Below are positions 7,732-58,560 of a stretch of 64,000 nt of DNA, in pieces. A program made the position numbers and the translations under genes. Source of the DNA: Bolinopsis microptera (Eukaryota > Ctenophora > Tentaculata > Lobata > Bolinopsidae); contig NC_087083.1 of the NCBI RefSeq assembly GCF_026151205.1, positions 4,938,460 to 5,002,459 of the forward strand, in the 5' to 3' direction. Below the pieces are notes generated by a model. The model searched no databases. It saw only the letters and a program-made list of their open reading frames with translations, and had not been told where the DNA came from. Every line of letters starts with the position of its first letter. Position 1 is the stretch's first letter.

Positions 7732-7850
7732 TATAGATCTGGACGCTGGTGAACTGTATTTGTTTCGACACGTGACAGTGACACTGGATTTTGATAAGTC
7801 AACATTGGAAGCTGATTGGTTAATGGTTGTCACGTGATCGAGATGTTAGT
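7732..7850. mobile_element. Short inverted-repeat (MITE-like) element, copy A
   Basis: It shares the string ATAGATCTGGACGCTGGTGAACTG-like start (in pieces: ATAGATCT, CTGGTG, TTTGTTT, CACGTGACA) with copies at 26929-27071 and 31393-31512. Copy A has the weakest inverted repeat. It contains an ATTGG-N11-CACGTG module. Confidence 0.45.
7815..7836 (+). promoter_or_regulatory. CCAAT/E-box pair, spacing 11
   Basis: ATTGG at 7815-7819 and CACGTG at 7831-7836, separated by exactly 11 bp. Confidence 0.6.
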
Positions 7851-9455
7851 AATCTTGTGCAAATATTGTGTAAAAGTTGTAGTATACACGCTGTGTACGT
7901 ATTACTTTCTGTGTAAATAATAAATATTGTGTGGATTAACAAATACAATGGTCTCATCAAATTAAACTGTATAAAATAAGACGGTGAAAGGAGTTTTCTT
8001 TACTACAAAAATCTGATAAAAGGTGATAAAAACAAAGATAAAAACATAAATAATAAAACAAGTATATAAACAAGTATCAACACAAGAATGAACACTAAAG
8101 ATGGGGGAAGTACCATGACTAAAAACCTAAAATGTAGAGACAAGTTTAATACTACACACCATGACTAGGAGCCTGTCCAATGCACTGTGGTGACGGCGAC
8201 TAGGAGCTTGTTTATTTGCTATGCGTGGTGTGTAGCAGTAGAGGAAGCAAGGAAAGTTTGAGGTGGCAGGAGAGATATGATGTATTATCATAATATGTAT
8301 AGGTTGTGTAATCTATAATGTACTTATAGTGCGTATATTTGTGTACCATCAAGTAATCAGGTATGTACAATATCTGTAAAGTTTACAAAATTGACTTTTT
8401 TGCATTTCTGTATTTTTTAAAGTGGCAATTGGCTATATTTTTCAGAACAATTATATCTTCAAAAAAATATTCTCGTATCGAATTAAATGATCACATTAAA
8501 GTGCACGTAAAGAGACGCAAAATTTAATTTTACAGCCGTAAGTTAAGCTAAGTACAATAATATCACTGAGCACAACAGTAATATGCTGAGATACTGAAAC
8601 CTGCAAGTACTGTAAATCTTGTAAGAGCTAGCTTGTAATATGTAGCTCAGCGACGGAGTGGACCCCTAATTATAACTCCTTACATTATGGCCTTGTCAGA
8701 TGCCTGACTCCATACCCTTGTATTGTAGAATCCAGGATGTGCAAGAACAACAGGATAAGTATTAAGTATGCGAATCTAAGGAAATTGGAAATTATGAACG
8801 ATTTTACTCGAACAGATTTATGGTTGCTATGTTATATTGCTATGGACGATATTTAATGAGATTATTAGGATTATGTAATCCAGAAATTGGTTTTGCTGAA
8901 CTTTACTGGCTGAGAAAAGTACAGACCCGAAAATAAGAACTTCTGATTGAATTTAAAACTGGCCTAAAAGCCACACGAAATAATCTAAGAGAACCCGAAT
9001 AATGACTATCTTGTATTGTACAGTTAGCAGCAATAAAGATTAGAGAGAACTGAGAAGTTGAGTAATTATGCACAGCTTGACATGCTGAGCTAATGTTAAT
9101 GATATATTTACACTGTTCCATATCAAGAATTGTTTTGTAGATTTATAACGTACAAACTCGCAGGGGAATCATCAGTAAAATATTGTACATCTCATTGTAA
9201 TTCGCTTATGTTTTACTTGTAAGCAAGGCAAAAGTTTACACTTCAAATAAAATTTCGAAGGAAGAGAGGGGAAAAGATGTGTTTAAGAAAGTCGACAATG
9301 AAGAATGGGCAGAGGTTAAATTCTTGCTCAGGTCGTTCTAAATAATGTTTGGTTAACCCGACTTGCCATGAACGTTCTGATTGGAGTGTTGTTCGACCAT
9401 GTGACAACTGTGAGGACCGATCAAAATCAAGATAACAACCCGACGTTCTTATCAA

Positions 9456-9485
9456 CCAAAGAGCATCAAACATGGTGATCACGTG
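9456..9485 (+). promoter_or_regulatory. Degenerate CCAAT/E-box pair, spacing 19
   Basis: CCAAA (one mismatch to CCAAT) at 9456-9460 and CACGTG at 9480-9485, separated by 19 bp. Confidence 0.4.
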
Positions 9486-9543
9486 ATGATCTTCAGTCAA
9501 TTAGCGACGAGAGAGATAACAGAGTGCGAGAGACCTTTTAGCG

Positions 9544-9573
9544 CCAATCAGTTTTAAGAATGATAACCACGTG
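9544..9573 (+). promoter_or_regulatory. CCAAT/E-box pair, spacing 19
   Basis: CCAAT at 9544-9548 and CACGTG at 9568-9573, separated by 19 bp. Confidence 0.6.
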
Positions 9574-10243
9574 ACATCTTATCAGCCCATCAGCATCGAG
9601 GGGGCTGAGGTTATCGGGTCTACTCAACAAGTCGGCACACTATCTTACATTATCAATTCTTGGTTTGTCGAGAACAGAACCATAGATAACATAAACACAC
9701 GTATAATACTAGAATTTTAATTAACGACACCATATTTGAAAATAATAGAGTGTTCGTGAGAATAAGTATATAAGTATAACCATATTTAATTTCATGGTGT
9801 CCAAAAATGTTTTCATATTCCAGAATATAATATATATATCCTTCTGGTTGGTAATATACTCAATGATGGAAGTATAGTGTATTGGCTATGCCCCGCTTAC
9901 TAGTTTAGCTCTTTCTAGTCCCCTGCTACACGGCATGTAAACAGGGATTGGCTAGTTAGAGGCGGTCCGTGTAGGCCTTACACTGTGCTTTCAGCAATAC
10001 TCATAAATAACCTGGTATTGCACTATGATTAGCTAATTAAATTACCTTCAATTGATTAAAATTTCTGTCATAACGAGGATTTTAGGGAATATATCGCTTT
10101 CTTGGAGCGAAATCTGTTTCTACTCTATTCAACTTTCATATAATTATAAGCTTAGAAATTTTGTTCCCCAGACGACAGGTTTTACTTGCCCTGAAGAATT
10201 GAACAACTTGCACTCAACAGAATCTAGTATTGAGTGCATGGTA

Positions 10244-10271
10244 CCCCCCCCCCCCCCCCCCCCCCCCCCCC
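10244..10271. repeat. Poly-C homopolymer, 28 bp
   Basis: Twenty-eight consecutive C residues lie in AT-rich surroundings. They create spurious polyproline and polyglycine frames on the two strands. Exact length in an assembly of such a run is uncertain. Confidence 0.9.
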
Positions 10272-11022
10272 TTTCCCTTCTGGGTCTCCAATAAAATTTA
10301 GAACTTAAGACTACAAATAAGCAATAAAACGGCAAAATCCGATGAAACATAACTTGTCGATATAAAATTATTAAATTTAATTCGACACAGCTTACTTATA
10401 ATGGCGTGTAACTTGTTTGTTAATGCATCAAATAATTCGTAAATCTCTAAAACTCTTAAATCATTGTTTTCTGTTAATTACAAGTCGTTTATGAAAATAT
10501 TAAAACTTATTTACATTTCCGCTGGTTCCTTTAAACTCACGTTACTTTCCTGAAATAAGCTAACTGATCAGCATTAAAATATTTAGAAAAAAAGGAAATA
10601 TGTCATAACTAATGACCCATTTTATAAAGAATTAAAACTAAAAGAAGAGGAAACTATTTTGAACATTTAAAAGAAAAGAAAAAGTGCGGTCAAATTTTAA
10701 AGATTTAAAATGAGATTTCACTTCTGAGCACTTCAAGAAAACTGGATGGTCACAAAGAATGCAAATTGTGTCACATAAAAGTCAGTCAGAAAAGTAGAAA
10801 AAAGATTTTCCCATGCAACAAATCTAATTATAAGTTAATCCTTAGCATATAATATAGATCAAGCATGCTTACGATACAAACATATGTTTAAGGCTTTAGT
10901 TCTGCTTCGCACAAAAATATATTAACATCACTCGAAAACATTTTTTAAACATCACAAGAAAATTATAATCTATGTATTTCTTAAATTTTGCTAAAGAATT
11001 GCGTGATCTGTAAATGTAAAAA

Positions 11023-13606: not shown

Positions 13607-14875
13607 TCATATAGAAAAATCAGACATATGGCCCTGCGAATCTTCCCCATCTCCGTCACTCTCTGACTCTGAGGCATCTGGATCATCAAACGCTTCTACA
13701 GCCTTGTCATGGTCAAATTCATAACAAACATTCTGAAGCCGAAAATCGGGGTCTATCTGTTTGATCTGTTGCCAGTTCACCTCATCGTTAGGAGCTGTGT
13801 GGGCTATGTTGGGACATGGAATTTTGGTCATGTGATCGTAGGGCCACAAAAAGAGTTGCTTTGGTGGAGTTCTACCCATGTGGAATCGGTTATAGCAATG
13901 CTTAGTAGGGATTGTGCCCACTATGATGCGTTGAGAGACACTTTTTTCCATGCCATTTACATTAATCATGATGGAGATCTCGTGGCTTACCTTCATGAAC
14001 TCGACAATGTTGACAGCTGATTGAGCGACCACAGGGAGAAGTAGTGGCTCCTTCTCCTTGACCAAATCATGTCTTCCCGCAATGGACCCCATCTCACTCC
14101 AATTCAAGACATTCCTTGATGTCTCTACCTTCTGTCCGGATGACAGATATTTCACAATCTCCACCAGTTGTATCCAGGAGTTTGATATTTTACTACTTGA
14201 ATTGTTATCTATCTCAACATGCAACAATATCTCCTCCCCGGGGACGTACCCTAACTTTTCTAATCTTCCCGCGACATGAATCTTCTTTCGTGACAGTCCT
14301 ACTTTAAAGGTTTTGGTAAAAGTAGCAGGTTGGAGAGCGTCCCGAACGTCACAGAGGTTACAAGCGTCGACTACTGAAACCAGGCGCTCGTGGTCTTGAA
14401 CTACCGCCCATGGCCAGTCAACCTCCGCTTTTAGGTAATATCTGATGTGCCCTTTGGGCAATTCCATTGATGAAGGAAGCTTTCTTTTCTTCTTCCCTTT
14501 GAGAGATATAGAAAATGGAAACTGTATATTATCTCCTGCTTGCAAGAACATTGTCTTACCTTCACCGACAATATACTTTTCTGTGTACATCAAATTATCA
14601 TCGTTGAACTGCTTTACTTTTTCTTTCTTTCCCACCAAACTACCTCTCTCTTCCCACCACACTACCTCAGAACGACACCGTAACGTCAACCTTATCCCAC
14701 GCATCCTTCGCTTGTACTTGTTGTCAATCTCCACAACCCCACTGATATCTTGGCCCACAAAGTAAACCTCTCGGTCCAGTTTTACTCTGATTTCCATGGG
14801 CTTCTCCTCGGGTGATGATTCCTCCTCTCCATCAGAATCTGAATCACTGAGTTCGAACATATCATGTTTGCCCAT
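13607..14875 (-). CDS. Alpha-arrestin (arrestin-domain protein), single exon
   Basis: This is a 422-residue intronless frame. An acidic N-terminal tail (MFELSDSDSDGEEESSPEE) precedes an arrestin N domain at about residues 28-175 (VKLDREVYFVGQDISGVVEI, LTLRCRSEVVWWEE, FPFSISL, LPKGHIRYYLKAEVDWPW). The arrestin C domain is at about 190-335 (KTFKVGLSRKKIHVAGRLEK, GYVPGEEILLHVEIDNNSS, HEISIMINVNGMEKSV). The C-tail is again acidic. Alpha-arrestins are adaptors linking membrane cargo to ubiquitin ligases, usually through PPxY motifs; I see no PPxY here, so partner choice may differ. It is 376 bp from the CFAP99 stop codon on the same strand. The family is clear; the subfamily is not assigned. Confidence 0.9.
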   Translation of the reverse strand: MGKHDMFELSDSDSDGEEESSPEEKPMEIRVKLDREVYFVGQDISGVVEIDNKYKRRMRGIRLTLRCRSEVVWWEERGSLVGKKEKVKQFNDDNLMYTEKYIVGEGKTMFLQAGDNIQFPFSISLKGKKKRKLPSSMELPKGHIRYYLKAEVDWPWAVVQDHERLVSVVDACNLCDVRDALQPATFTKTFKVGLSRKKIHVAGRLEKLGYVPGEEILLHVEIDNNSSSKISNSWIQLVEIVKYLSSGQKVETSRNVLNWSEMGSIAGRHDLVKEKEPLLLPVVAQSAVNIVEFMKVSHEISIMINVNGMEKSVSQRIIVGTIPTKHCYNRFHMGRTPPKQLFLWPYDHMTKIPCPNIAHTAPNDEVNWQQIKQIDPDFRLQNVCYEFDHDKAVEAFDDPDASESESDGDGEDSQGHMSDFSI

Positions 14876-33200: not shown

Positions 33201-36200
33201 AACCACCGGACGACTGGTGGTTCACACCGTTAACCGGCTTTATCGGGTACTTTATCTTAACAGAGTGGGGGAAATTAGTCAGGTCAAACCTCTTCAGCTG
33301 TATCACCTGGGTTTATGTTATTATTATTTGTGATTTAGTTTTCGTGTATATTTAGTGTATATTTAGTGCATATTTTCCTTAAATTATACATACAGTAAAA
33401 TAGTAAATTAAGATTTACTAATATAGCTCTCGAAGTTTCAATTTATTTATTATTTATTATTTATTGAAGTATTTTAAATGAATAACAAATTTAAAGGATT
33501 TAAATTTGAAGCAAAATTCAAAACAATCTCAATATATTACCTGTCCGTTCCTGTAGTTGTAGTTGTCGATGCATTGCTGTAAAATCTCACACACGATTCG
33601 TCGCTGTTTATCAGGAAAAGCCTACGGAAAAAAATATTCTTAGGAACATTCCAAGGAAAACAGGAAGATAATAAAACGAAAACGATCAATAGTTTAAGGA
33701 AATAAGACTATTAAGTTTTAATAACTAACCGCGTGTTGGGCAGCATCCTCCAGTAACTTGAAAAACAGCTTCTGACAGTCTTCTTCAATGTTGTTTGCCA
33801 GGATTATATTTCCAGCTGAAGACAAGTGGGTGTCGGTTAGTAAAAATCAAAATATCTAATCAATTGATAATATTAATTATTAAGTTAATGATGTCAAGGA
33901 TACAGCTCAAACTTAGTAAAACTATCAGCAGCTATGATTATGGTAACTGATAACATTAAAATTCGGATAGGATTAAGCAAGATTCTGGGATGGGTTAAGC
34001 TTAAACTTGGATCAGCACAAATGATCATTATTAAAAAATCCTAATTAAGCTTATATCACGTGACTCGCACTAACCAGTTTCCAGAACAGTAGTGTAAACA
34101 TAGATCAGTTCGCAGGTCGGACTGTCGTAATCCGGATCCGGATTAGGAGCGAGGGGAGAGGAGGGGGGAAGCCGGAAGGGGGTTTTCATCAGCATGTTGT
34201 GAAGCTCCGTCACACAGGGATTGAAACGTCCAGGTTTGGAGAGATCCTGCGAAAGGGATGAAATTAGAAAATTTATTAATATAATCAATGATAATATAGA
34301 TTATTGATCCTTTTAGTGTAGACTAATTTTATTTTTATATTTACCCTATTTACTATTTAGTGCGAACGATACATCATGATTTTTATTGATATTTTTTGAA
34401 TGTTTGATTATCATAATATAAATTTATGTAATATCTTATTCGAGGCCCATGCCAGCCCATGCCATGGGAGGGGGGGGGGGGTAAAAATTGGCCAAAAAGT
34501 GATAACGTAATATTATGAACCACCCCTAACGAGCATACAACTCACATTCATGATATCCTGCAGCAGACCATGTCTTCCAGACAACTTCTGAATGTTCAGC
34601 AAAATCTTCCTCCTCGCTCCCTCCGTAATATCACCCAGTTTCAGTTCATTTAACTCCACCATGGTGTCGTAGTTCATGGCTGAGAGTTTGGCGTAGTACT
34701 TGTGTAGACGCAGTGTTTTCAGCCAACTCATCAGCGCTGAGAGGTGGGAATGTTAATTAATTAATTAATGTTGATTGGTATACTGATTTACACTTGGTTC
34801 AGGCCCTAGAGGCTAGACGCGCAATTTGAAATGGTGAGGCTGCATTTTCAGGCACATGGCCAATGTTAGCGTACAGAAAAGGACTAATCACCGTTCTTAT
34901 GTTTTGAAACAGCAGTAAAACCTAAGTTCCTTCTTCGGTTTTAATTGCTTAAAGCGTGGTTATAGAATATTGAATGCCATAAATTTGGCTTTTACACTGA
35001 AAATAGTTACACTGGGTTTTTCTTAATGGGATGACAAAAGATCTAGATTTACAACTAATGCCATCATACCATTGTACAAGAGTACAAGACACGGTTACGG
35101 AGTCACCGTATACACCAAGTAAAGTAAACTCAGTTAACAGCCCGGGAAAAGTTAAATATCAAAAATAAGGAACGAGATTTCTAAATGTTGGGAACGCGAA
35201 CGTTTGTTTATGAATGAGTTAGATTAATGATAAGGGGCATTTCAAGTGGTTCAACGCCAACCAATAAAACACACGGAATTCTAACACGTGACCAGCTACA
35301 TACCAGTCATATGAGAGGTAACATCAATAGCTCGCTCTCTGTGCTGCACCTTACATCTCGTCCCCACAAAGTTCCCTCCACCCAATGGCTCACTCTGGGA
35401 CCTTTTAAAGATGACGCCGCTGTTACGACGACAGTGAGGCGGCAGGCTAGCGAGTGCCGGCGGTGGCGGTGGCGGCGGCGGGAATTGGAACATGAAGTTG
35501 GGGTTGTAGACGAACATTTTGTCTTGTGTTGGCGAAGGAGAACAGGATGATGATCTGTGGGTCGTAGGATTTAATTAATAAATTAAATTAAGTGTTGTGG
35601 TTGCAAAGTTATTTTAATTGGGTTAACAAGGCAAAAATAGAGCTTTTCGTTGGTTTTATTAAATACAAAGTATCTAAAGTAAGAGCCTAAAAGCCCATTA
35701 TATTTTTATTTAGGTATGTACTCAAAGCGCACTGTAATTTGACAAGCTCATTACATGTGGCTTCATCAACAAAGATTATCAAATTTTATTGATCAACAAT
35801 TAATTAAGTTTATCAATTAATGTATATTATTGTTACATTTTATCGATCAATTAATTAAGTTTATCAATTAATGTATATTATTATTACATTTTATCGATCA
35901 ATTAAGTTTATTAATTAGTTAATTAACTAAATTACCTATCAGAGCCCCCAGAACTGTAACCGCTCTCCGACTCGTGGTAATTTGGGAACAGTCGATCAAA
36001 CAGGTCAACCCAGTGGCACAGAGACGCGCGCTCTGCTACCGTAAACGAGGGGTGACTGAAATCAATTAGTGGTTACTAATGGTGTAATTGATTAAAGTTG
36101 GTCATTATGTGAAAATATGATGTTTGGGTTCATTTTAGTATGAACTAAAAAGAGCTGAGGTGAGGCATTGTACCATTGTAAGAAGGCAGAACAAGAAGGA

Positions 36201-39200
36201 ATGTTGAGATGTTGTAAAAGAGAGCTATGATTATGTAACACGTCATATCATGACACAAAGACTCAGTGGTGTTCACAAATCAGTCACGTGACATAAAATA
36301 AATCAGTCACGTGACAATACACAAATCAGTCACGTGACAAGACAAGGTAAATACCTGAAAACGAGCCACAGAAGCTGTCTGCACTCCTCTAGATGTGTCT
36401 GAGTCTCGTAACTCCGGCAAATAGTCCGGTCAACAAGCTTTAGGTACAGTTGATTCAGGACCGGGTTACCTGACACGTTTTACATTAATTAATTAATTAA
36501 CTTATTAGTTGATTAATTAACTAATTAGTTAATTGATTCAACACGTATGACCTATAATAAATTATAAGACCCAACGTATCTACTATCTATACTGACTTTA
36601 ACCCCCCCCCCCCCCCCTGTAAACTACTAGTTAAACTATTGTCACGTGTACTGACCTGGTCCCAGTAGTTTAGTGAGCTCTATCAGTTGAGTGGGGGTAC
36701 ACACACCTCCCTCCATACTTGCCAGATATCCTGAAATAATTGGGGTTACACAATGAAATATTATAATTAGCTAATCGATTTTGTGTAGATTGTTCCAAAT
36801 TTGAGAAATGACTAGAGTGTGGTTGCCAGATTTTGTTCCGCAGATTAACTTGTTTTGGTGTTTAGTATGGTAATAATATGAAGTTTAACTTGCAGTGAAA
36901 CTGAAGAGCGGCTTTCTCTCTGTGATGAAAATATTTATTATGAGCGCAAGAACATACGTATATTAATACTGAGTAACTTTTTGAATAAAGCAGATATTAT
37001 TTCTAGGAGAACTCCTCAAGTTCGCTTTATTTAACTGTAACAGTTAACACTGTCCATATAAACAAAATTAATCATCCATATAATCATGGCTATCATTCAC
37101 AATAACCCCAATAATGGCACAGCGATTTTTTGGCAGAATATCACATATTCCATTCTTCCCAGAAGAATGGAGCATTGTTGCGTTTCTTCAACTCACTATT
37201 CTGAGTGATTGGTGATGCACACGTGCTAGATACACACATTGAGTATTGACTATCAAATTGACGACTTCAACTAAATTATACACACAATCCATTTCAATTG
37301 TGTGGTGAAGGTACAGGACGTGTTACTGCGTTACACGTGTACTACACGTGTAACGCAGTAATAGGGAATAATTGACATGGTGATAGAAAGATACACTGTT
37401 TTTTTAGACAAAGAAATCGTGGATTATCGGGCACTGGCAGGTCGGATAATATATACATGATATGAGATGTGTGTAGTTTTATGAGAGTAGCTAGTTCAAC
37501 TTTGGACACGGTTATCAAATGATGTTGTATCAACTTATAACATCAATTACAGTTGAATATATTTTTAGAAATTAGAGCGACCTACAAGATGATTCGGCCA
37601 TGTATTTTAGTTTTTTCTTTAGATATCATTTTATAATTCTTTATAATTCCACGTCGGAATAACGTGTGAACACTCACACGTGTGTAAGGATCGGTATTCA
37701 GATTTTTTCAGATCGACATAAAACCAAGACCCCCATCTAATGCTAACAAGGTTTTAACTTATTAAAAATAAAATGTTTGTACAAATAATTACGATATTTT
37801 TTGTGTTTGTATGGGTTCGAAAGTATGTGACTGTGATATTATATTAGTGATATTAGTGTTGTTAACATATTTAAGATATTTTAAATGATTAACATAAATT
37901 AAGTTTTGTAGCATAGTTATCATAGTTTTAAAGTATAGCTTAACATTCAGCCACAATCTATTCCGTGCTTTATCTCCTAATAACAAGCGGGTTTTCTTTT
38001 TTCACGTATAAACATGACAATTGGCAGTGGGATTCGGTTGGTTCGTGAAAATTTAGAAAAATAATCACCATAGAACAACTTAGGACAAACCATCTAGATC
38101 AATCTTCAGACCAAAGCCAAGGAAAAACACACAAACAAACCTCAGTAAGTTGCCAGAAAACAACCCTTTAAACCTCCAACATTCCCCAATATTAACAAAA
38201 AACAATACACAGTGATTTCAGACTTAAACTTGGATCACAGAAACCGGGCACGAAATAAGCCTCACAAGTCACATCTAGAAGAAATCGCTCAAATCTAAAC
38301 TTTCACAAAAAACAGGATTATCAATATCATAGAAAAGAATGCAAAATGTACATGGTAAATAGTATGCAGTACGGGTTGCGTAAAAAAGTAGCACTTTCCA
38401 TTACTAATTTTAGGCTTACGTAGTTTATGCGGCTGAGCGCTGTAAGTTAATTAGTAAAACTACTTCACAAGTCACGTGATATTTTCCAAGGCTTCCTATT
38501 GGCTGGCAGTATTTTCATTTGCATCTGATTGGCAGAAAGGAAACAGAAACAAGCTGGTCGTGCACCAATGAGATGGGTTCTCATCAGTTACCTAGTGTTA
38601 CGTATTAATTTTATATTGGTTGAGTAAATTATTGATACGCAGCAGCGGTACAGCTAATACATTAGGTAAATCCAGCCCTATGATATATTCGGAGTGAAGT
38701 TTAAATCTTAATATTTAAATTTAATTAATTAATTGTGTTACTTATAAACACATATAATCTACGAGCTACTAGTACTTAGCAAAAGACACAAGATGTGACC
38801 GATTTGCCGTTATTAGAGCACGAGGCAGGAAGTTCGGTAATTTTCGCACAGTGGCGATAATTTAGGAAATGATAGATGTTATCAATGAATTTGATATCAG
38901 ATGATTTAATTGGGTCACTGCAAGCTGTAGACGGGAAGCGGGGATGGATTACTGCTCTATCTTTTTTGGTAATATTTTAACCAATAACCATCTGACAATG
39001 GTATGATCAGTCAAAAACAACAAAGTACAATAGCCAATGAGCCGACACGACAGTGACTATAATTCTGTACCAAGTTTTCACAAATTACAACACAATAAAG
39101 ATAGTATCTTATCCGACCTACTTTCAACAGAAGGATCCACATCACAAGAATCTTCCCACATTTCCTCCAACTCTAAATCTTCCATAACAACACAGAATCT

Positions 39201-42200
39201 AACTCGTAACAAAGAAATAATCAAAAGATAATCAACGATACAAGAAAAACTTGGCAGCGATGAACATTAAACACACACGCAGATTATCTATTCCTCCACG
39301 CAAACTCTTTCTCTGTAGCTCGATTGCATACTTCTTAAGCTCACATGGCTGCATGTCAAATGCAATTCCAGCAATTCTACAGCTCAGGAAAAAGTTTTAA
39401 CATTTACTTTTTAACCCTTGCGGTTTTGTGACTGATATAATATATTATATATTATATATTATAGTAATGTTATATGTATGGCGAATTATATATGTTAGGA
39501 ACTTACTGTGTGGGGATTATATATTTCGTAGAATGCTTTTAAAAAAGCTTTTAGAGTCAGTCCACAACCAACCAATCCAGTGCGACTGTGCAAATTTAAT
39601 TTTATGTACATGTAAAAGTTCAATGAACTATCAAGGGTGGGCCGTGGATATGATTTTAAATTATCTCTTTGATATATTATATTGTAATATCTGGATCACT
39701 TTAATAACTGATATGATATCAGGGGGCCAGTAAAATGTTACAGCGCTGCAAACACAAGCCAATAAAATGGTCGAGTCTGAGTATATATTGCATGACGAAC
39801 TTATTGATAAAGTTAATATTAATAACGACAACGTTTCCATCAGTATAAATTATAAAACAGTGATCTTGGTTATATCAGTGAGGGCTCTTTTAAAATAACG
39901 ATCAACTTTGCATGTGGAGTATTATAATTTATAAATACATGCTGGCACTTTCCATGGAATACATCTGGCGGGACAATGAGAGGTATTTGCGTTCGTGATT
40001 TAATGGACCAGTTAGTGAGTTGTAGATATTTAAATTTCCTTGTTATAAATTGGATTTCCGGGTAAAATATAGATTATTGTTTACGAATCATTTCTGGTTT
40101 ATAATAACTTACTTTGAGTATTGAGTATTATCATTATTATAATATAATAGACATATTTTTCTTAAGACAATGGTAACATGTTTTTAAGTCTGTGAAATCC
40201 ATCCATTACAACTGAAAGACATGTTCCTTTAAAGACCTCTTGAGTATTTTCATAACCCTCTGCAAAAATAGACGTGCGATGAAAAACATTTCCTTCACAC
40301 TTAGTTTTCCTGCTAGCGTCAAGTACAGCACTTAGTGCTTACGCATTATCTTGATATCGCTGGCCATGTATCAGGAATTCGCGACATATTTAAGGATATT
40401 CAAGTTATTTTACAGGATATTAAAGATAGTTAAGACGGGTTATTTTGTCGTGTTATAGTTTATTTTCATCATCATATATTGTCCCTGGCTTTCTGCAGCA
40501 CAAACTGTGATACTTGTTTGGTTTACTGATAAATGATATTCCACACAAAGCATGAAATTGTGCTGTATATGAGTGGTGATTTCGCTCTGAGAATCAGGGT
40601 CAGTAGCTCAATTGGTAGAGCAAGAGACGCGAAATCTCGAGGTTCTGGGATCATTCCCCAGTTAACTGCAGTTGTCCCTAGTTTTTCAGAGTTAATCATC
40701 ACATATAGACAGCATGAGAGTAGGCCTGGCCATCTGGAAGTGATAATAAACTGTGATACTGTTATGTCACTAAGTGTACACAGTGTAGTAGACTACAGCA
40801 TCATTCGCTGTAAACCTACATATTTTAGTCCTTTCCAGTATTAGACAAAGAATTTGTGAGCCTACTTAGAAGCCTAAAAACGGGTCCTATTATAGCTGTG
40901 ACAGAGCACATAGTTTTCAGGTGCTCTATAGAATAAACCTCATACTGATGAAACCCTCGCACACACATAATATTACACGCATATCACACGCATATTACAC
41001 GCATATTACACGCATATCACACGCATATTACACGCATATTACACTTAAAGTTCTGAAACAACAATTTATGAAGGTACACAAAAACCACGTACCTAGTATG
41101 CCTAAAACACCGTACATACACCCCATTATATGGTAAGTGGAACGTGAACAATACAATTTGATTTCGGAACCCACTTATTACCCAAGCGTTAATTATCAAT
41201 TACAATTCACAGGTGCCCTAGGAAACTCTGCTGCTCAGTGCTAGCGTTAAAGTAATGACCTGCACTCTCCACGCGATATCACGATGTAACAATAAGGATG
41301 GAATCATGAATAACCATGGCAACCGTGTTAACCGTGTTTACATTCACATTCCACACTTAGGATTGGGTTTTACGAATGAAATGTTTTATCCCAGCTCTTC
41401 CAAGCCTGGTCCCTATGGAATTTGTGTAGGGCGTGGGTTCGGGCACGGGCGTGACCATCAAAGTTCTCTAAATATTTCGTGTGATATGTCTGCATTCTTT
41501 AGTTTTTGAGACACGCGCCCTTCGACTTCCTATCTTTGAGTGGTATTCTATTTCTAATGTGTTATATATTTGTATGCATCTGAGCTGTTTACTCTGCCAA
41601 GTCTAATTTGACCGATACAAAACAAATTTCAGGCTCTTAACTTTCAGGTACTTACTGATAAAGATGTCACTCGGAGAGTTCACATATTTTCCAACATTCA
41701 ATGTGGTGTGAACAAAATTAGAGTATATCATATTAGGGGCTTTCTTTGTGTTTACATATTGAGCTGGAGCATTGCCAAAATTATTGTACACAAAACACTT
41801 CAACTCTGGGATATAAATGTGTCACGTGATGAGAGATCTAGCATGATGATTGCCGATTGGTTCACACAGACCACGTGACATTACACAAAGCGATCTGATT
41901 GGTCAACGCATATCACGTGATAACAACATTAGACAGCAAATGTGTGTCTATAAAGCCTGGATATTGGGTTACAGTGGGTTGCTATGTTAAAGTAGGTATC
42001 ATTATAGGTGCACTGCACACCCACATTTGTTAACTTCGTTATCTCGATGCTAATGTATTAAATGACATCTATCTCTCTGTTGAAGCTCTAGGTTCTACGA
42101 GGTGTTAACTTTATTTTACTCTCTGACATAACTTAATTCCGTCCTTACTTTACACCTTAAAGACCAAATTTCTTTGATATAAAATTCAGTGATCATGTTG

Positions 42201-45200
42201 GAAACACTGATAGGACCAAACGGCAAATACATTTCTTTGATCCAGGTCGTGATTTTGCTGGAATGTGAGTAGATATTGGCTGTTGGTGCTTGAGAACCGT
42301 AGAATATCTTACTCGATATTTCAATTGATGGTTTCACCAAAAAAAGCTAACTGGAAATACAGAATATAATCTCATCAGATAGGAATAACTTTATAAAAGA
42401 TAAAGACGTCTTATAAAGATAAGACGGTTGGTTTAGGCTGGTGTCCAATGAAATGTGGCGCCTGCGGCTATCCAAATTCGGCCTCCAATTAAACCGCTGC
42501 GTAATTTACATTATTCAAAATACTAGGTTTAACAGGCCAGATACCAATCTGTATTCATGAGCCGTATTGTTACTTTCTGTTATTGTGCTGCGTATAATAT
42601 ATATTGACCACGGGTAAGTACTAAGTACACAAAATGTAAGATCCCTGTCGCCAGTACGAGAATTCTGTCACCAAGTGTATCCGTTTGGTACATTTTACAA
42701 TATTAATTGTATCATGTTAATCATGATCCTCGGCCTTCTAGCTCACAGATTTTACGGGATATTATATATTATGGAAATAAGGGTAAGGATATTACGGCTT
42801 GAGCCTATTCAGTATTCCCTTGCTCTGCTATACACTACTTACTAATACCCTAGACTCAGTCTACATTCACTATGTAACCTGGATCATTAAACATTACACA
42901 TACCATTACACAAAATACACATACCATTACAAATACCATTACAAATACCATAATACATACCATTACACATACCATTACACATACCATTACACATACCATT
43001 ACACATACCATTACACATACCGTAACACATACCATTACACATACCATTACACATACCATTACACATACCATTACACATACCATTACACATACCATTACAC
43101 ATACCATTACACATACCATTACACATACCATTACACATATTACACACGCAGTGGATTATCATTACATCGTTTATCGTTACAAGTCCTCATTAGCAGAGGG
43201 CCAGTGTCATGGTATGTCAAGAATCCTTGGAGGAATGCCAGAAAGGTGTAAGCACAGCAAAATAATAAGATTTGTTCATGTCAAATATTTGCACAGGTTA
43301 TCAAATTAAGATATCACCAATGATATCGGTGTTTAATTACCGTTTAAACTTCAGGGAATGTTCCAGTAAAATAAAACGGGTGGTTTAAAAAGATGATTTT
43401 TCTGACCATTTAGCGGAGAAAAAGTGTAATTTATCACTTTAGTTCTTCTGTGGAATTCACAGTCGAAGAGTCCAACTGAATTAAATAAAGTAATGAGTGT
43501 TTCACTTTGACACACTCGTCACATAAATTAAACTTTTAAACTAGCAACAGTCAACACATTACACATTTTCCCTATTAATAGAACAGGAACCCGCTTGCCG
43601 GCTTAGATTTGTTACAGAATCAAGCCGAATAATAATGCCAAAATCTAAATTCACTGTTTCATTAGCTTGATTTCAGTGAGGGTTGATGACCAAAACATGG
43701 ACAATCCATATCTTCCCATCCGTTTCAAAACTGAGTGTACTCGGTAGTATCGGCACTCAGCTGATGTGAAATTTAAGCTGCGTACTCAAAGTTGTCTTTG
43801 AAGCATCTCTCAAGGGAATTAAATCGGAATTTGCAGCTGTAAACATCTGTGTTATCTTAATCTAATTTTCTAAATAATTCCATGTATTCGGACGGTTCAT
43901 GAGATATTTTGAAACAATTCCCAGATCATGCTTAAAGATATTGGTAACCAGAATCATTCTGTTTGATAACAAATTAGCTGTGACAATTTGAACATAATCT
44001 CATACATGACATACAGAAGTTGATAAATTAATTAATTAATAATTAGCTAATTATAAACGAGTACTAGATGAACCAGTACCCTGTGTACCAGGTGGCTGCA
44101 GTACTGTGAGCTGCGTGGAGGGACCTCACACAACTCTGTAGACCTATTGTTGGGCTACACTCTGTTTCTATACAGGTTCCAGATGTTCAGAGAGGGGACA
44201 TTGTACACTGACTTGTGATTGGTTGATTGAGATCACGTGATAGGTGGTAATTGGTTGGATTTAATCATGTGGTTGATTTGACGGGTGCTGATTGGATGAA
44301 AGAAGAGAGGTGGGACATTTGAGACTTGATTGAGTAAGACTAAGAGCTCTGGTTTAATCAGGACTTTAGTGCCACATAATTGAGTAATAACGGAGGGTTT
44401 AACGAGTTCAACTTTAAATTTAATTCTTACACGATAAGGGGGGAAGCCAAGGGGTATTTTGGGGTACTTTGGCCTGGGGTATTATGATTTATGGGGGACT
44501 TTATTATGGGGGATTTCCAAAATCCATTAAGGCATTCCCCATAATACCCCAAAATACCCCTTGGCTTCCCCCCACGATTAGTATTGGGCTTCTTTTTATC
44601 GTTGTAAACATGAACTATAAATGGCGGCATTTTCCTCAGTTCTAAACCAAAAGTATAGATGCGGTCATTGGCAGACATCGAAATTCGAAATAGTTAGCAT
44701 TCCTATTTTCAAAATGACACAGATTATCGACCACCGCGCTCTACATACACAAATATATTTTAGTCTACTGTTACCTACATGATGAGTGTTAAATACGAGT
44801 GTTATACGTACTATTTCACACTTGGTAACTGGTTCCGAGAGACTAAAACTGTCATCATAGTGTCTCTGGTCACGTGATAACACCGCGACCTACATGTCAT
44901 CAACTATCTTAACCCGGAATTGGGAGAATTCTATGTTTTATCCAACGAAAACACGCGAGAAATGTTCGAGAAGGAATATTGAAAGTAATGTGTAGCTCAT
45001 CAGTGGAATGAGACGTACAAACATTGGTAGAAGTTTAGTTTGAATTTAAAACATTTTTATAAATACTTTTATAAATTTCGGATGAGCTACTTTGATTGTC
45101 AGACATCTCAAACATGAAACACGCCTCAAAAGTCTGATTTATTTAGATTTTTAACTTATTTCCATATTCTTCAAAAATGTTTACAAATCCTGATATTTCC

Positions 45201-50999: not shown

Positions 51000-53356
51000 G
51001 TCAGAGAGTCAATTAACAGTGTAGATATATATACCAAATTACATTCAGCCCAAGCGAGATGAGGCGCTATTTTAGGACGACGTTATATATACTGTATTTT
51101 TCAGCTGATGGCGTGTTCAATATAGCGCCTTTTGTGTTAAATGATGTGAGTGTAGCTTGGTGGCTATTTTAGTGAGCGTGGCACGTGACAAGAAACATTG
51201 TCACGTGTGATGGTTGCTGGTTCGTGTGATGGTGGACCAGCGCCCTCGGCTATATTTGTATCTGGCCTCATGTGATTGTGCATGTGGTGTCGCAGTAACA
51301 AGATCACGTGGTTTGCACGTGGTTTGCACGTGGGCTGAGCGTTGACACTGTAACAAGCGCCATGTGATCATGGTAGGAACAAATAATGAAACAGCCTCAA
51401 TTGTGACGGAATGTACGAGTCGAGGGCAATTCTTCAGAGTTTGAAAATTACTTTTTTTGTCTTTACTAATGGTCAATTGAAAATTGGAAAAAAGAATCCT
51501 AAAATTGCTGCAATCTATAATAAAAATCAGTGCACGGCCATTATTGATTAATGAATCTACCAGGAAGTTGACTGAATGAGATTAAAACAGCTGCATGGAA
51601 ATAGTTTGCATTGTTCGATAAATTGACAAGCGATTCAGTATGCTGTCACATATATGAGTATGACTATGAGGTGCGTTCACGGAAATTCGATTTGAGAACA
51701 AAAGATTCTTACAGTTTCTTATAATTATATGTTTGTAGAGTTATAGTGGACACTGAATTCTGAAGTAGACTTCTTTGATTACCACATATTAAAATTGCTC
51801 GGAATAATAAGTAAGATAAACATCAAATTCCAGGCATATTTTGACGATAATAATCGTACTATTATCATAGAAGAACCCCCCTTACTTATACTACATTTCT
51901 GGTGTACGTGATTTAACTTCCAAAAGTGGGAGTTTTGTTCTAAATTACAGACTCCCTACACTTCCTTAGTACTACCTATACTACTCAAAAATTACTCAAG
52001 GAAAACTGTCAAGAATGTAACAAATATTAAGACTTCGATTAAAAATTCATAGTTACAAATTAACGATTTATGCCAAGTCTTAAATTTCATAACATTAACA
52101 TTCCAGCGTCATCATTTCTCATTCATCATTGTCACATTCATAAGGATTAATTTACTTCTTCACAAGATTAATTACTGTGTAAGTGCTTTAACCATTTATG
52201 GCCAAAAATGAAATTTATCTTTAAATTACATATATTACCAAATTTCATGCGCACCTGACATAGTTCCTCAACACACGAAACTAAAACAAATCTCACAATA
52301 AATCAAAACAACGGAACAATATCTCGTCTCAATCAGTAACTGTTTCCAACAATGCCGTAAACGATCAGCTTAAACAACAAACAGTTTTGTATAAACAATA
52401 TTGATAATTAACACACACCAATCAAGTAAACTGTTATGCGATAACAAAGTATTTAATGAGCTAACTAAAAATAGCCTGTGTCTATGATTGTCTACATGTG
52501 TCAGCAAAGTGCCGGACCACGTGATCATTTTCCTGCTGTTTCATTGGATGATAAGGTAAATGTTTGGTTTTGATTGGTGGGAGGTTGAGCGTGCGGGTGT
52601 GTATAACTGGCCGGTTACCAGATATTCATCTGACCAAAGCGGTAATCTATTTTTGTTGCGAAAGGAGGGGGTTATAAGTCAAAACGGGTTTCAAAGCTGA
52701 ATTTGGTTTCTTAATTGTAGTTTGAGCCTGTACAATGTAACGTGAGTGTGTATTATCATAGGTAGATTAAACAAACGTTTTATTTGTCAAAGCAAGTAAA
52801 CGTTGGAGCCATTCCAATTTTGTAAACGATGCGAACAATTTGTTGTGAGATGAGTTGTACATTGTTGTGATTCTTGTCAGACAATTCAAAAATTATTGGC
52901 AAAAAGCCGGGCTGATTGACAATCGGAGTATTTCGTATGAAATTATCACCCTTGATCAGTAATAAAATACGGCTTTTCAGTTTAACAAATTCTTAAAACT
53001 TAAATTTAAGACTATTTGTCTTTTCAAACCCTACAACGGAATTTAGTGACAGACATTAGTCATTACTATTGGTCACCGAGAAAATCAATACTAGAGGGGC
53101 TTCATGGACCATGGTTATGTAATCAGAGTGTGGATAAGTTCTGGAATCTTTACAAGGTATTTTCTAGAATTGTAAAAATAAAGTTCAATGTTAGAACCGA
53201 GGTATGTAACCTTAGAACGGTAAGATGACAGGATTACGCTAGGTAAGTAACAGGTAACTTTATTGGTGCAGTCAGTGAATTAGATGCTCCAAACCGGACG
53301 ATATTTTTGTGGTAAATACCACCATATTACTAAATTTCAGTAGAGGTACTGACTCT
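51000..53356. other. Intergenic, E-box-rich region
   Basis: No gene is seen. Clustered CACGTG/GCACGTGG words occur at 51182-51331, and a CCAAT/E-box module lies at 52518-52547. It may hold Smaug promoter sequence. Confidence 0.4.
52518..52547 (-). promoter_or_regulatory. CCAAT/E-box pair, spacing 19
   Basis: On the minus strand CCAAT (plus ATTGG 52543-52547) is followed by CACGTG (52518-52523) after 19 bp. Confidence 0.6.
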
Positions 53357-54174: not shown

Positions 54175-54308
54175 ATAAAACCACTCGAAATTTTAGTAAA
54201 CAGATTTTATTTAACAAGAAATTATGCTCACTTAATTTAGAAATCTTTAAAATTAATATTTTAAAAGAAAATTAGAATAAATAAGCTAATAACTCTGATA
54301 AAACTCAC

Positions 54309-54974: not shown

Positions 54975-54999
54975 CTAGAACTAATAATCATGATGATAC

Positions 55000-57198
55000 C
55001 AATCAATTATCGAGCATTTATCAAGTGATTAGCAGATTATCGAATTACACCAATTGATAAAGATAATGTCCCTTAATTTGGGAGGACTGTCTCTTGATCT
55101 TGGTCGCTTAGTAACGATATAAGTGAACATGATCCGGCTAAAATCGTTTATTATACAGCCCTGTACGTTCACACACCCAGTATTAATTTATCATTGTTCT
55201 AATAATTTGTCATTTTGTTAGTATTTCAGAGACATTCTCCGATTATTACATGACCAGAGAATGTCTCATCACTGCACTGGAACATTCCTAGTAAATCAAA
55301 TATTTAACTTATGTGATAAAAATGTAACTTATGGAACAATAAAAGCGAGCAGAACAAAGTACCCCTTAATCTGAATGAGATGCAGGATGTTTAGGTAAGA
55401 GGTAAAAATTCAGACAAATCGATACGATTGTTAAATATGGTTTTATAAAAGTAAATAACAAGGAAGTATGAGTTGGCCAAAAGCCAGAGTTTCGAGTCAG
55501 CCGAAGAAGTCCAAATCATACCATTTTTTTGTCTTGCAGTTTAAGAAAATCGATCAGTTCGTGTAAAATCACAAATAAGATCAAAGTCCCGTGATATGAG
55601 GTTGGGGTAGATATCAATATGTCATAAACAAATCATCAGTAAAGACAATCGTTCAAACAAAGAAATAAATGGAGAAGTAACGGGTTACCCGCTCAGACGA
55701 CCAATGTTAAAGGCACAAAGACAATTTGGACAGTTCAGGAAGTTGGCGGGCCAGACAAATTGATACAAAAATTAACAATTTTACGTGGTCTTGAAATATA
55801 ACATTCGCTTGACAGACTGTGGATTGAAGCTAGGACTTGGTTATAAACTGAAGCGTAGTAGGGCGACGTGAAAATCAGTGACAAACAATTTCTTTCCGTA
55901 GTTCAATGCCTAAGTTAAATATTTCCACATCCGGATCTTTTTTCAGCGTCCGGATCTTTGAGAGAAATGACTGAGGTTCAGAACGTCAAAGTTTGGTAAA
56001 GAATAGTTAGTTACGTGAATAACAGAGCCACAAACGAACGGATACGTGCACAGCGGATAAAGGCTTGAGACGATTCCAATAACTGCAAAATAATAAATAA
56101 AGAAAGTCCTCCTGGAATCCAAAAAATACAGTAATATTAGCTAGTCTCCTAAAAGCTGCTAAGAAATGGTATGGCTCCATTCCATTCGACCTAATGCAAA
56201 GAAACCGTACACACAAGGCCAAGGACACAGAGCAAAGGTCCGCACGTTCAATGAAAATCTGTGAGTTCAGCTATTTCATTTCCGCAAACTGGCCACTCAG
56301 CAAAGTTATAGATCTTTCATGTGATCGAAACAGCCAATCAAACGATAGGAATTTTACACGTGACGGGATACGAAATTAGAGTTGGTGTGCTAAGCTGTCA
56401 ACAGCTTTGCGGGTAAGGTGTTCGAATATCACAGCTTTTAAAGTACTTTGAAGCAGATCTGTAGGTTGTGCTTGGCAAGCTAAAAGAGTTATATATTGTT
56501 GAAAGGAGATGGGCCGAAAGCAGACATTGATCTTAATGACGACACATCAAACAACATTGATTCAAGAACTGGGAAACAGGATTGAACTTTGTTTTGAATG
56601 GGTTACTATTACTTTGTTAGTCTCCGTAAGTGGCAGGAAGCATACAGAGAAGCAATTCGAGTTGGCGGAAGTATCGTCAAACAAAATGTTGTGCCAATAA
56701 ATTGGATTAGACAAATAAACAGCTGAGAAAGTAACACTCAACAGCATCTTATCGATAGGAAGTTGTGTTATAAATCTTTGTGTATCAAGATTATCAAAAC
56801 GAATTAATAACAACTATTAACCAATGATATAGCCATATAGGCGAAAAACACCACATCAAACTAGGCAATGTAAGAATTTATTGGGTCGCCGTCATTCACG
56901 GGCTTCCCTGTGGCATCAAAAATTTGCACAAGATCATCCTCAATGGTCGAATGGAGCAGGCGCTCCTTCATCAATTTCTTATTCCACAGCAAATGTTACA
57001 CTTTCGCGCGGCTTTATTTACGCGATTCATACATGATATATTTAAAATGTATGTCTACAGTTAAATCTGAGGGCGCGGCAAGTTATTACATTATTGTGAT
57101 TCACAGTTTATGATTCTTAATTTAAAATTTAGTTGATGGCGCTTCCACTAAATCGCTCACCCAAATTTTAAGAAAATTATTGTAAAAAGGCCCTGAGG
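55000..57198. other. Intergenic DNA
   Basis: No gene is supported. It holds a small hairpin (GAGACATTCTC...GAGAATGTCTC, about 55229-55268) and a CCAAT-N18-CACGTG module at 56334-56362. Other short frames show no family features. Confidence 0.45.
56334..56362 (+). promoter_or_regulatory. CCAAT/E-box pair, spacing 18
   Basis: CCAAT at 56334-56338 and CACGTG at 56357-56362, separated by 18 bp, one short of the spacing of the other forward pairs. Confidence 0.45.
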
Positions 57199-57201
57199 GT
57201 A

Positions 57202-57286
57202 TTAACGGGTGATACTCATAAAATATTTGTTTCGACCGTCAACGAGTCCAACTCGGCACGCGTTCTGGTAGGTTATAAACCTACAA
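57202..57286 (-). mobile_element. CpG-rich island repeat family, copy 1 (inverted)
   Basis: On the minus strand it starts TTGTAGGTTTATAACCTACC, continues with CGAGTTGGACTCG and ends GAGTATCACCCGTTAA, like the copies at 58116 and 58569. No target duplication was seen next to this copy. Confidence 0.8.
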
Positions 57287-57485
57287 TAATGAATAAGGGT
57301 ATGAAAGTAATTTAATTCGGTGCATTTTGGACGCGAAGTGCGCACCGGAAGACAAAATAGATGTAAAAGGTTTACAATGTTAATCAAATTTGACAAAATG
57401 ATAAGCCGATCAGTGCCGACCAGTAAATTGCAAGCTGTACAAAAATTTAAAATTTTGATGAGCGCGTTACAGTCCAACTATTGAA

Positions 57486-57861
57486 TTGTAGCGCAATGCG
57501 TTACTGTACCGCGCCGCGCACTCAATGAGGCTTCTCACAGCTAGATCGGCGAGATGCGCTACTGTGCTGCGCCGAGCTGCGATGAATTGACATCGCCAAT
57601 TAGCTATTAAACTGTCCAATAGTGCATCGGGATATATTAACCGAGCCTTCTCGCTTGCAGTGGTGCGAGACCGCCGAAGGCGGCAAAGGAAACAAGCGCG
57701 TCACGCAGTACGCGTATACACATCGCTATGTCAATGATCCGCCTGTATCGTAGAAACTCTACAGGGGTGAAATTGTAGCGCGATGCACTACTGGGTCGCG
57801 CCGCGCATCAAATAATTCTTCTCACAACCGCAGATCGGCGAGATGCGAAGGATTGACATCG
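57486..57861. repeat. Two diverged direct copies of a GCGC-rich unit
   Basis: 57486-57595 and 57774-57861 share TTGTAGCGCRATGC, a GTCGCGCCGCGCA-like block, CTTCTCACA, AGATCGGCGAGATGCG and ATTGACATCG. The first copy has an internal partial duplication. Function unknown. Confidence 0.75.
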
Positions 57862-58115
57862 TGAAACAAGGGTGAAACAACGATGGGAATCACGACGTGA
57901 TACAAGTGCTTTCCACTTTCGCGCCATTTATAGTGTACTGTAGTGCAGGTGTGTTTGTTTCACAAGCCAGATGGCAGGTGCAGCAGGCGCGAGCTATAAC
58001 TGCAAGCGCGAAGGCTCTGATTAGAGTAAGGATTACATTGCATTGCATTGTAAGCATGTAACATGTAAAAGTTTGTAGTGAAGTTTTAAGGTAACAGCTG
58101 CTAAGCACTTGTATG

Positions 58116-58196
58116 TTGTAGGTTTATAACCTATCAGGACGCCGAGTTGGATCGGACTCGTCGACGCGGTCCTGAAACAAATAGTATCACCCGTTA
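58116..58196 (+). mobile_element. CpG-rich island repeat family, copy 2
   Basis: 81 bp from TTGTAGGTTTATAACCTATC to AGTATCACCCGTTAA. It is head-to-head with copy 1, so 57202-58196 is an inverted-repeat-bounded block of 995 bp. Confidence 0.8.
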
Positions 58197-58538
58197 ACTT
58201 TGACGGATGTTACTCGTCTAAATTTCTTCGAAGTAGCGCGCGCCGCTTTCTTCTCGATGGCAAGAGCTACGAAGTAGCGCGCGCCGGGCCAGATCATTAA
58301 CAATGGTCAACCGTTAGCTGAGCACCCCCAAGAAACCTTACCATTAGGGGCCTAACTTCGGAAGTAAAAGAAATAGAAACATTTGGTTTTCAACAAAATG
58401 TCCGTCTCGTAAAACTAAAGTTAGCTCTCCAGGAGCCAAATTCAAAACAATGTAGATTTTCAATTCTTGGGAAAAGTCATATATATTTTAGGCCTTATAA
58501 AACTGCGCTGCTTTAACTTTGCGGAATCTTGTTCTCTG

Positions 58539-58560
58539 ATTGGCTGAATCGTATCACGTG
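58539..58560 (+). promoter_or_regulatory. CCAAT/E-box pair, spacing 11
   Basis: ATTGG at 58539-58543 and CACGTG at 58555-58560, separated by 11 bp. The last base of the E-box is the first base of the 9-bp duplication of the insertion at 58569. Confidence 0.6.

What the first reader, a model, noticed from the sequence alone, without database searches (positions are those of the whole stretch)
7815..58560. Fixed-geometry CCAAT + CACGTG composite sites across the window
Five sites read ATTGG-N11-CACGTG (7815, 41856, 41898, 44218, 58539) and four read CCAAT-N19-CACGTG (9544, 35261, 38473 minus, 52518 minus). There is also one N18 (56334) and one CCAAA-N19 (9456). Spacers and flanks are unrelated, so these are not copies of one repeat. 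NF-Y (CCAAT) and bHLH-ZIP factors (CACGTG) are known to bind cooperatively at set distances. Both spacings are seen directly; the functional reading is inference. It may be a genome-wide regulatory grammar, with two allowed arrangements about 8 bp apart.
Basis: partly seen in the sequence, partly recalled or inferred. Interest (0 to 1): 0.75.

Follow-up and report, generated by a model that had tools for sequence, protein, structure and literature searches.

The report
Paired NF-Y and E-box DNA sites
In a comb jelly genome, thousands of sites pair two control-protein landing words, CCAAT and CACGTG, at two fixed distances, one matching the distance known from human cells, and often chain them head to tail about every 41 bases, which suggests a very old gene-control rule.

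Summary
Confirmed: all 11 sites are present; N11 occurs 5 times and N19 4 times, against 0.03 in shuffles. The genome matches the ctenophore Bolinopsis microptera. Genome-wide, ATTGG-N11-CACGTG occurs 3013 and CCAAT-N19-CACGTG 3273 times; 28 other gaps average 296 and 193, and CAGCTG at the same gaps gives 126 and 138. Paired CCAATs carry NF-Y flanks (RRCCAATCAGA); isolated ones do not. The genome encodes NF-YA, USF-like and MITF/TFE-like domains. N11 and N19 look like the two sides of one NF-Y site: E-boxes with both partners are head to tail in 18 of 18 cases listed on C1 and 4 of 4 in unselected DNA, giving chains with a pitch near 41 bp. N11 equals the human NF-Y/USF/MITF spacing of 10-12 bp (PMC7793273). 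I found no description of the N19 E-box slot or polar chains, but key papers were not held. Many sites lie in repeats (58539 does), yet distinct sites alone exceed background. Binding and function are inferred.

The parts
7815..7836 (+). ATTGG-N11-CACGTG (E-box on the 5' side of a minus-strand CCAAT)
9456..9485 (+). CCAAA-N19-CACGTG, one letter off the 3'-side arrangement
   Evidence: sequence
9544..9573 (+). CCAAT-N19-CACGTG (E-box on the 3' side of CCAAT)
35261..35290 (+). CCAAT-N19-CACGTG
38473..38502 (-). CCAAT-N19-CACGTG; a second CCAAT starts 30 bp upstream on the same strand (38532)
41856..41919 (-). Head-to-tail chain CACGTG-N11-CCAAT-N20-CACGTG-N11-CCAAT; E-boxes 42 bp apart
44218..44239 (+). 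ATTGG-N11-CACGTG
52518..52547 (-). CCAAT-N19-CACGTG; a second CCAAT starts 30 bp upstream on the same strand (52577)
56334..56362 (+). CCAAT-N18-CACGTG, one base short of the N19 mode
58539..58560 (+). ATTGG-N11-CACGTG inside a dispersed repeat copy

Best explanation
The sites are composite cis-regulatory elements for NF-Y (on RRCCAATCAGA) and a bHLH-leucine-zipper dimer of the USF or MITF/TFE type (on RTCACGTGAY), in Bolinopsis microptera. NF-Y is asymmetric about its CCAAT, so a neighbouring bHLH-ZIP dimer fits against it at two places: about 11 bp on the 5' side or about 19 bp on the 3' side. Because CACGTG is a palindrome, one E-box dimer can sit between two NF-Y trimers, next to the 3' side of one and the 5' side of the next; repeated, this gives a polar chain with a pitch of about 41 bp, close to four helical turns, so that successive factors of a kind face the same way. 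Shown by sequence: geometry, enrichment, flanks, polarity, presence of NF-YA, USF-like and MITF/TFE-like domains. Inferred: cooperative binding, which bHLH-ZIP protein is used, and enhancer or promoter function. The 5' slot is the one known in mammals, so that part of the grammar is probably as old as animals; transposable elements have also picked it up and spread it.
For: Whole-genome counts: ATTGG-N11-CACGTG 3013, CCAAT-N19-CACGTG 3273; mean of 28 other gaps 296 and 193; same gaps with CAGCTG 126 and 138, although CAGCTG is two thirds as common as CACGTG or more (66 against 98 in 194 kb; 45 against 52 in the 130-kb sample). De-duplicated paired CCAATs (n=31 and 37, sets that share some sites) show R at -2/-1, C/G at +1, A +2 (77, 81%), G +3 (71, 59%), A +4 (58, 78%); 225 isolated CCAATs show no preference. 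NF-YA domain in three loci, best PDB match NF-Y alpha 4awl; USF-like (L048, best match USF 1an4); MITF/TFE-like (L043, best match MITF 4ati). E-boxes with two partners are head to tail in 18 of 18 (12 loci) listed on C1, about 0.09 expected by chance, and in 4 of 4 in the window and 10-kb samples. Adjacent units are mostly not duplicates: 20 of 23 pairs have 53% identity or less in the spacer. Human USF1/2 and MITF lie 10-12 bp 5' of CCAAT (PMC7793273, passages); in most NF-YB/USF1 regions CCAAT is 17 or 18 bp downstream of the E-box (PMC7046753, passages).
Against: No binding, accessibility, TSS or expression data. NF-YB and NF-YC genes were not searched. Many copies are repeats: 67 of 95 N11 and 48 of 98 N19 places fall in multi-member spacer clusters, with a generous merging rule. 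N10 and N12 together give 2105 and N18 and N20 together 1296, so the peaks have shoulders; the listings show repeat families in N10 and N20. Adjacent chain units are somewhat more alike than units of different loci (mean 0.39 against 0.28), 3 of 23 clearly duplicates, and several N19 spacers share a string beyond the NF-Y consensus. In unselected DNA 15 of 98 CACGTGs are in a pair, and over all E-boxes there the 41-bp pitch is not visible (none at 39-41 bp, two at 42). One human promoter study found NF-Y and USF promoters almost mutually exclusive (PMC6238301, passages).
Confidence: 0.78

Rival explanations
1. The peaks are mainly the product of repeats: one or a few old transposon or minisatellite families with a 41-bp unit carried CCAAT and CACGTG at these distances, and decay left scattered relics; fixed spacing reflects ancestry, not protein contacts.
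For: Large clusters of identical or near-identical spacers; 58539 lies in a dispersed repeat; a 41-bp tandem array at C1:12.03 Mb; several N19 spacers share a CAGAGCACAGTATT-like string; 3 of 23 adjacent units are duplicates.
Against: Clusters counted once still exceed background: 36 (N11) and 61 (N19) on the first 13 Mb of C1 against 5 and 7 places with CAGCTG on about the same stretch. Base preferences lie mainly in the NF-Y and E-box flanks, and 20 of 23 adjacent units are no more than 53% alike. Ancestry alone would not be expected to reproduce the human NF-Y/USF gap and the NF-Y flank consensus. Spacer clusters with unlike letters carry the same geometry.
Confidence: 0.15
2. CCAAT is read by NF-Y but CACGTG by a different palindrome-binding factor (ARNT/BMAL-type bHLH-PAS, HES/HEY, MAX) or a ctenophore-specific protein, possibly an architectural one; the pair is a chromatin-looping or insulation element rather than an activator.
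For: HLH domains that look ARNT/BMAL-like and HES-like by eye are also present. A ctenophore genome (Mnemiopsis) has 4,261 chromatin loops (PMC12221973, passages).
Against: E-box flanks (R)TCACGTGA(Y) fit USF/MITF/TFE (preference recalled; composition). The published loop motif is described as GC-rich with two CpGs, bound by CTEP1/2; that paper's main text has no CCAAT, NF-Y, USF or CACGTG.
Confidence: 0.15
3. Chance co-occurrence of two common words in a genome with too many CACGTGs.
For: CACGTG is 3- to 5-fold over-represented.
Against: Over-representation raises all gaps alike; N11 and N19 stand 10- and 17-fold above the mean of other gaps with the same two words.
Confidence: 0.01

Closest known systems
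Mammalian NF-Y/USF (and NF-Y/MITF) stereo-positioned CCAAT/E-box pairs (ENCODE; PMC7793273, PMC7046753, passages seen)
   Same: Same two words, same orientation, E-box 10-12 bp on the 5' side of CCAAT; N11 equals this slot.
   Different: The ctenophore genome has a second, equally frequent E-box slot at 18-20 bp on the 3' side, and head-to-tail chains; neither is described in the passages I read (figures not seen; MAFG is said to lie mostly 3' of CCAAT). Organism is a comb jelly.
Mouse Miwi core promoter (NF-Y and USF1/2; PMC3355075, passages seen)
   Same: CCAAT at -97 to -93 and functional E-box at -82 to -77, 10 bp between them.
   Different: Single pair in one promoter; orientation of CCAAT and letters of the E-box not seen by me.
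ERV9/LTR12 U3 enhancer tandem repeats (PMC11853044, passages seen)
   Same: About 41-nt pitch of CCAAT-bearing repeats bound by NF-Y, repeated 5-17 times, spread by a mobile element.
   Different: Partners there are GATA-2 and MZF1 motifs, no E-box mentioned; closely related tandem units of an LTR, whereas most chains here have unlike spacers.
ER stress response element (CCAAT-N9-CCACG, recalled)
   Same: NF-Y with a fixed-gap partner on the 3' side.
   Different: Gap and partner word differ; partner there is ATF6 (recalled). Not tested here.
Ctenophore loop-anchor GC-rich motif bound by CTEP1/CTEP2 (PMC12221973, passages seen)
   Same: Sequence element found throughout a ctenophore genome.
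   Different: Described as GC-rich with two CpGs and zinc-finger bound; motif letters not given in the text seen.

Membership tests
NF-Y/bHLH-ZIP stereo-positioned composite element | CCAAT with the extended NF-Y consensus flanks | tested here: met
   RRCCAATCAGA in 31 and 37 de-duplicated sites, flat in 225 isolated CCAATs; the NF-Y consensus itself is recalled
NF-Y/bHLH-ZIP stereo-positioned composite element | E-box CACGTG 10-12 bp 5' of CCAAT | tested here: met
   3013 at N11, 5118 at N10-12 genome-wide; human value from PMC7793273
NF-Y/bHLH-ZIP stereo-positioned composite element | CCAAT mostly downstream of the E-box (5' slot), as reported for human NF-YB/USF1 regions | tested here: not met
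   3' slot at N19 is equally frequent: 3273; hence a variant
NF-Y/bHLH-ZIP stereo-positioned composite element | Genome encodes NF-YA and USF or MITF/TFE | tested here: met
   PF02045 in three loci (4awl match); USF-like domain; MITF-like domain
NF-Y/bHLH-ZIP stereo-positioned composite element | Genome encodes NF-YB and NF-YC | not tested
NF-Y/bHLH-ZIP stereo-positioned composite element | Co-occupancy in vivo | not testable with these tools
   No ChIP or ATAC data
ERV9/LTR12-type NF-Y repeat array | CCAAT pitch near 41 bp | tested here: met
   Among composite E-boxes listed on C1, 15 of 21 consecutive intervals up to 130 bp are 39-42 bp; 9 of 14 without the array at 12.03 Mb
ERV9/LTR12-type NF-Y repeat array | Closely related tandem units | tested here: not met
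   20 of 23 adjacent units at most 53% alike in the spacer; 3 of 23 are 80-87% alike
Single transposon family | All instances share flanks | tested here: not met
   36 and 61 spacer clusters on C1; of 11 window sites 58539, and weakly 7815, have similar sequence among the window and fetched loci

The most novel reading that the evidence does not exclude
A comb jelly genome uses NF-Y and a bHLH-ZIP dimer as alternating links of a polar, helically phased chain (CCAAT-19-CACGTG-11-CCAAT, about 41 bp per link), a widespread enhancer code built on one slot inherited from the common ancestor of all animals (5', 11 bp, still used by human NF-Y with USF and MITF) and one E-box slot (3', 19 bp) not described in the passages read, with transposable elements recruiting and spreading the code.
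Probability: 0.45. Interest if true: 0.87.

Novelty: new variant of a known kind. Interest (0 to 1): 0.72.

Why it matters
Enhancer sequences are rarely conserved between distant animals; one study that found 25 segments conserved across bilaterians found none in ctenophores (PMC10735318, passages). A spacing rule can outlive the sequences that carry it. If NF-Y and a bHLH-ZIP factor obey the same gap in comb jellies and humans, that grammar probably dates to the root of animals and can be tested by DNA alone in any genome. The 3' slot and polar chains predict a specific contact geometry for NF-Y.

Tried and rejected
Chance co-occurrence: rejected by gap counts and the CAGCTG control. The range searches appear to count at most one partner per word on a strand; on DNA I hold this loses 0-1 of 56-59 pairs, so it does not matter. 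One transposon family: rejected as sole cause, kept as a contributor. Loop-anchor motif of Kim et al.: no overlap found in the text, letters of that motif not seen. Distance histogram from the listed rows: not relied on, because the listings stop at about 100 rows, reverse-strand rows end early, and I entered distinct strings only, leaving out a few near-variants. Window gene context: SOUL, IQ-motif and arrestin open frames lie at 0.5-15 kb, but gene starts near the sites could not be mapped. One glutamate-receptor domain (L049) did not identify the phylum; L050 did (best hit ML032222a). tblastn of the SOUL ORF against plasmids gave nothing and was of little use. Literature search returned nothing because one of its terms was ill chosen. 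Fleming 2013 and Dolfini 2016, which I take to be the main NF-Y spacing papers, are not held and were not read; the 3' slot may be described there.

Rows dropped before counts: one search used 95 of 100 listed N11 places (the five beyond 13.3 Mb dropped) and 98 of 100 N19 places (two dropped), all on C1; one search used 93 of those 95 and all 98. The 20 stretches were chosen because they hold paired sites, several because the lists had already shown a head-to-tail double, so the 22 of 22 head-to-tail doubles in all fetched DNA are not independent of the 18 on C1; the 4 in the window and 10-kb samples are.
Full report
What was checked. In the window ATTGG-N11-CACGTG occurs 5 times and CCAAT-N19-CACGTG 4 times; 100 dinucleotide shuffles give a mean of 0.03 for each and never more than 1. 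With the real, high number of CACGTGs (46, against 8.3 expected from dinucleotides) the expectation is 0.12 per arrangement.

Which genome. G000 has 264,652,675 bases; 13 contigs are 15.2-26.2 Mb long and the next seven asked for are under 0.2 Mb; a 130-kb sample has 38.3% GC. A published table gives Bolinopsis microptera 265 Mb, 13 chromosomes, largest 26.2 Mb, 38.5% GC (PMC11797021, passages). A glutamate-receptor domain from G000 has the receptor ML032222a as best solved structure (that this name is Mnemiopsis leidyi is recalled); a second one was uninformative. I take the organism to be Bolinopsis microptera.

Genome-wide counts. ATTGG-N11-CACGTG: 1421+1592 = 3013, reversed-pattern control 77. 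ATTGG-N{10,12}: 5118, so N10 and N12 give 2105 together. ATTGG-N{2,32}: 13399, so the other 28 gaps average 296. ATTGG-N{21,50}: 7424, 247 per gap including tandem repeats. CCAAT-N19-CACGTG: 1733+1540 = 3273, control 62. CCAAT-N{18,20}: 4569, so N18 and N20 give 1296. CCAAT-N{5,35}: 9965, other 28 gaps average 193. With CAGCTG in place of CACGTG the two arrangements occur 126 and 138 times; CAGCTG is somewhat rarer than CACGTG (45 against 52 in the 130-kb sample, 21 against 46 in the window), which does not explain a 24-fold difference. In 13 10-kb samples, one per chromosome at one fixed coordinate, N11 occurs 4 times, N12 once, N18 once, N19 twice, every other gap from 0 to 44 at most once.

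Repeats. Of the places listed on the first 13 Mb of C1, 95 N11 sites fall in 36 spacer clusters and 98 N19 sites in 61, with a generous merging rule; 28 and 50 are singletons. On about the same stretch CAGCTG gives 5 and 7 places. So repeats account for perhaps half of the sites or more (at most 67 of 95 and 48 of 98 by this rule), but distinct sites alone exceed background several-fold. In the window, 58539 is in a dispersed repeat; 7815 has a weak similarity within the window and two short hits elsewhere; the other nine sites have no similar sequence among the window and fetched loci. The whole genome could not be aligned.

NF-Y signature. After removing similar sites, CCAATs in pairs show purines at -2 and -1, C or G at +1, A at +2 (77 and 81%), G at +3 (71 and 59%) and A at +4 (58 and 78%), in both arrangements (the two sets share some sites); 225 isolated CCAATs in the 10-kb samples show no preference. 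This matches the NF-Y consensus RRCCAATSRG (recalled). There is also C at +8 (65 and 54%) and G at +10 (39 and 49%), which I cannot explain. E-box flanks are RTCACGTGAY, as for USF and MITF/TFE (recalled); 87 isolated CACGTGs (counted on both strands) share the T and A more weakly.

Genes. NF-YA: five domain matches in three loci; the best matches the NF-Y alpha structure 4awl. bHLH: 29 matches, six read. One is USF-like (L048; 1an4), one MITF/TFE-like (L043; 4ati); the other four look ARNT/BMAL-like or HES-like by eye. NF-YB and NF-YC were not searched.

Two slots, one site. CACGTG is its own complement, so N11 and N19 can share an E-box. Among the places listed on C1, 18 E-boxes (12 loci) have both partners; chance predicts about 0.09. 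All 18 have the two CCAATs in the same direction; neither of the two inverted forms was seen. In the unselected window and 10-kb samples it is 4 of 4; over all fetched DNA 22 of 22, but part of that DNA was fetched because it held such doubles. Chains such as CCAAT-19-CACGTG-11-CCAAT-19-CACGTG follow (L023, L025), also 18/12/18 (L027) and 20/11/20/11/20 (L033). Consecutive composite E-boxes listed on C1 lie 39-42 bp apart in 15 of 21 intervals up to 130 bp, 9 of 14 without one tandem array. Over all E-boxes of the unselected DNA that pitch is not visible: none at 39-41 bp, two at 42, with 11, 12, 24, 36 and 48 bp commoner, probably from tandem repeats. Adjacent units mostly are not duplicates: 3 of 23 pairs are 80-87% alike in the spacer, 20 are at most 53% (mean of all 0.39, between loci 0.28). 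The window holds one such chain at 41856-41919.

Mechanism. NF-Y is asymmetric about CCAAT (recalled from its structure), so an E-box dimer abutting its 5' side would be 11 bp away and one abutting its 3' side 19 bp away; 5+19+6+11 = 41 bp, close to four turns. I infer cooperative contacts, or at least phased packing, between NF-Y and a USF- or MITF-type dimer. Polarity is a constraint on any model: a symmetric E-box dimer should also accept two 5' faces, yet that form was not seen. Possible reasons are growth of chains in one direction or origin of some chains by unit duplication.

Comparison with what is known. In human ChIP-seq, USF1/2 and MITF lie 10-12 bp 5' of CCAAT (PMC7793273, passages) and in most NF-YB/USF1 regions CCAAT lies 17 or 18 bp downstream of the USF E-box (PMC7046753, passages). 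The N11 arrangement is that slot. A 2018 promoter study saw NF-Y and USF promoters as nearly exclusive (PMC6238301, passages), so co-use is not universal. The mouse Miwi promoter has a functional pair 10 bp apart (PMC3355075, passages). LTR12 enhancers carry CCAAT repeats of about 41 nt with other partners (PMC11853044, passages). For ctenophores, searches (listings; 13, 38 and 77 show only 20 of 263, 10 of 310 and 15 of 1,619 papers) showed no paper on this pair, and PMC12221973 has none of the words in its main text. For the spacing itself, searches (listings) led to the papers above; the NF-Y papers of 2013 and 2016 are not held, so novelty of the 3' slot is not established.

Verdict. Function remains to be shown.

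Noticed in passing
window, whole; L009-L021: CACGTG is over-represented on its own: 46 against 8.3 expected in the window and 52 against 16 in 130 kb of samples; 83 of 98 copies have no CCAAT partner at the two slots.
   Followed up: partly
38473-38532 minus; 52518-52577 minus; also L035, L041: A third recurrent gap: a second CCAAT exactly 30 bp upstream of the first (CCAAT-N25-CCAAT-N19-CACGTG) in 2 of 9 three-prime-slot CCAATs of unselected DNA and 4 of 43 in all fetched DNA.
   Followed up: partly
paired sites, +8 and +10 after CCAAT: C at +8 (65 and 54%) and G at +10 (39 and 49%) beyond the NF-Y consensus I recall, in both arrangements.
   Followed up: no
36275-36340: Three E-boxes in a 23-bp tandem repeat (unit ACAAATCAGTCACGTGACAAAAA) whose unit has no CCAAT.
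   Followed up: no
51305-51333: Perfect 11-bp tandem repeat CACGTGGTTTG, an E-box about every helical turn.
   Followed up: no
G000 C7:5786332, C11:8466648, C4:10257949: Three loci with an NF-YA domain; in the C7 locus the domain is uninterrupted in a 375-codon open frame.
   Followed up: partly
508-1314 minus; 13607-15028 minus; 11023-11991 minus: Long open frames with a SOUL heme-binding domain, arrestin N and C domains, and an IQ motif.
   Followed up: partly
61481-61555 minus: tRNA-Ser with anticodon CGA.
   Followed up: no
57207-57286, 58115-58174, 58569-58719: Short pieces similar to each other and to L001, L002, L010 and L020, suggesting a mobile element family around 58539.
   Followed up: no
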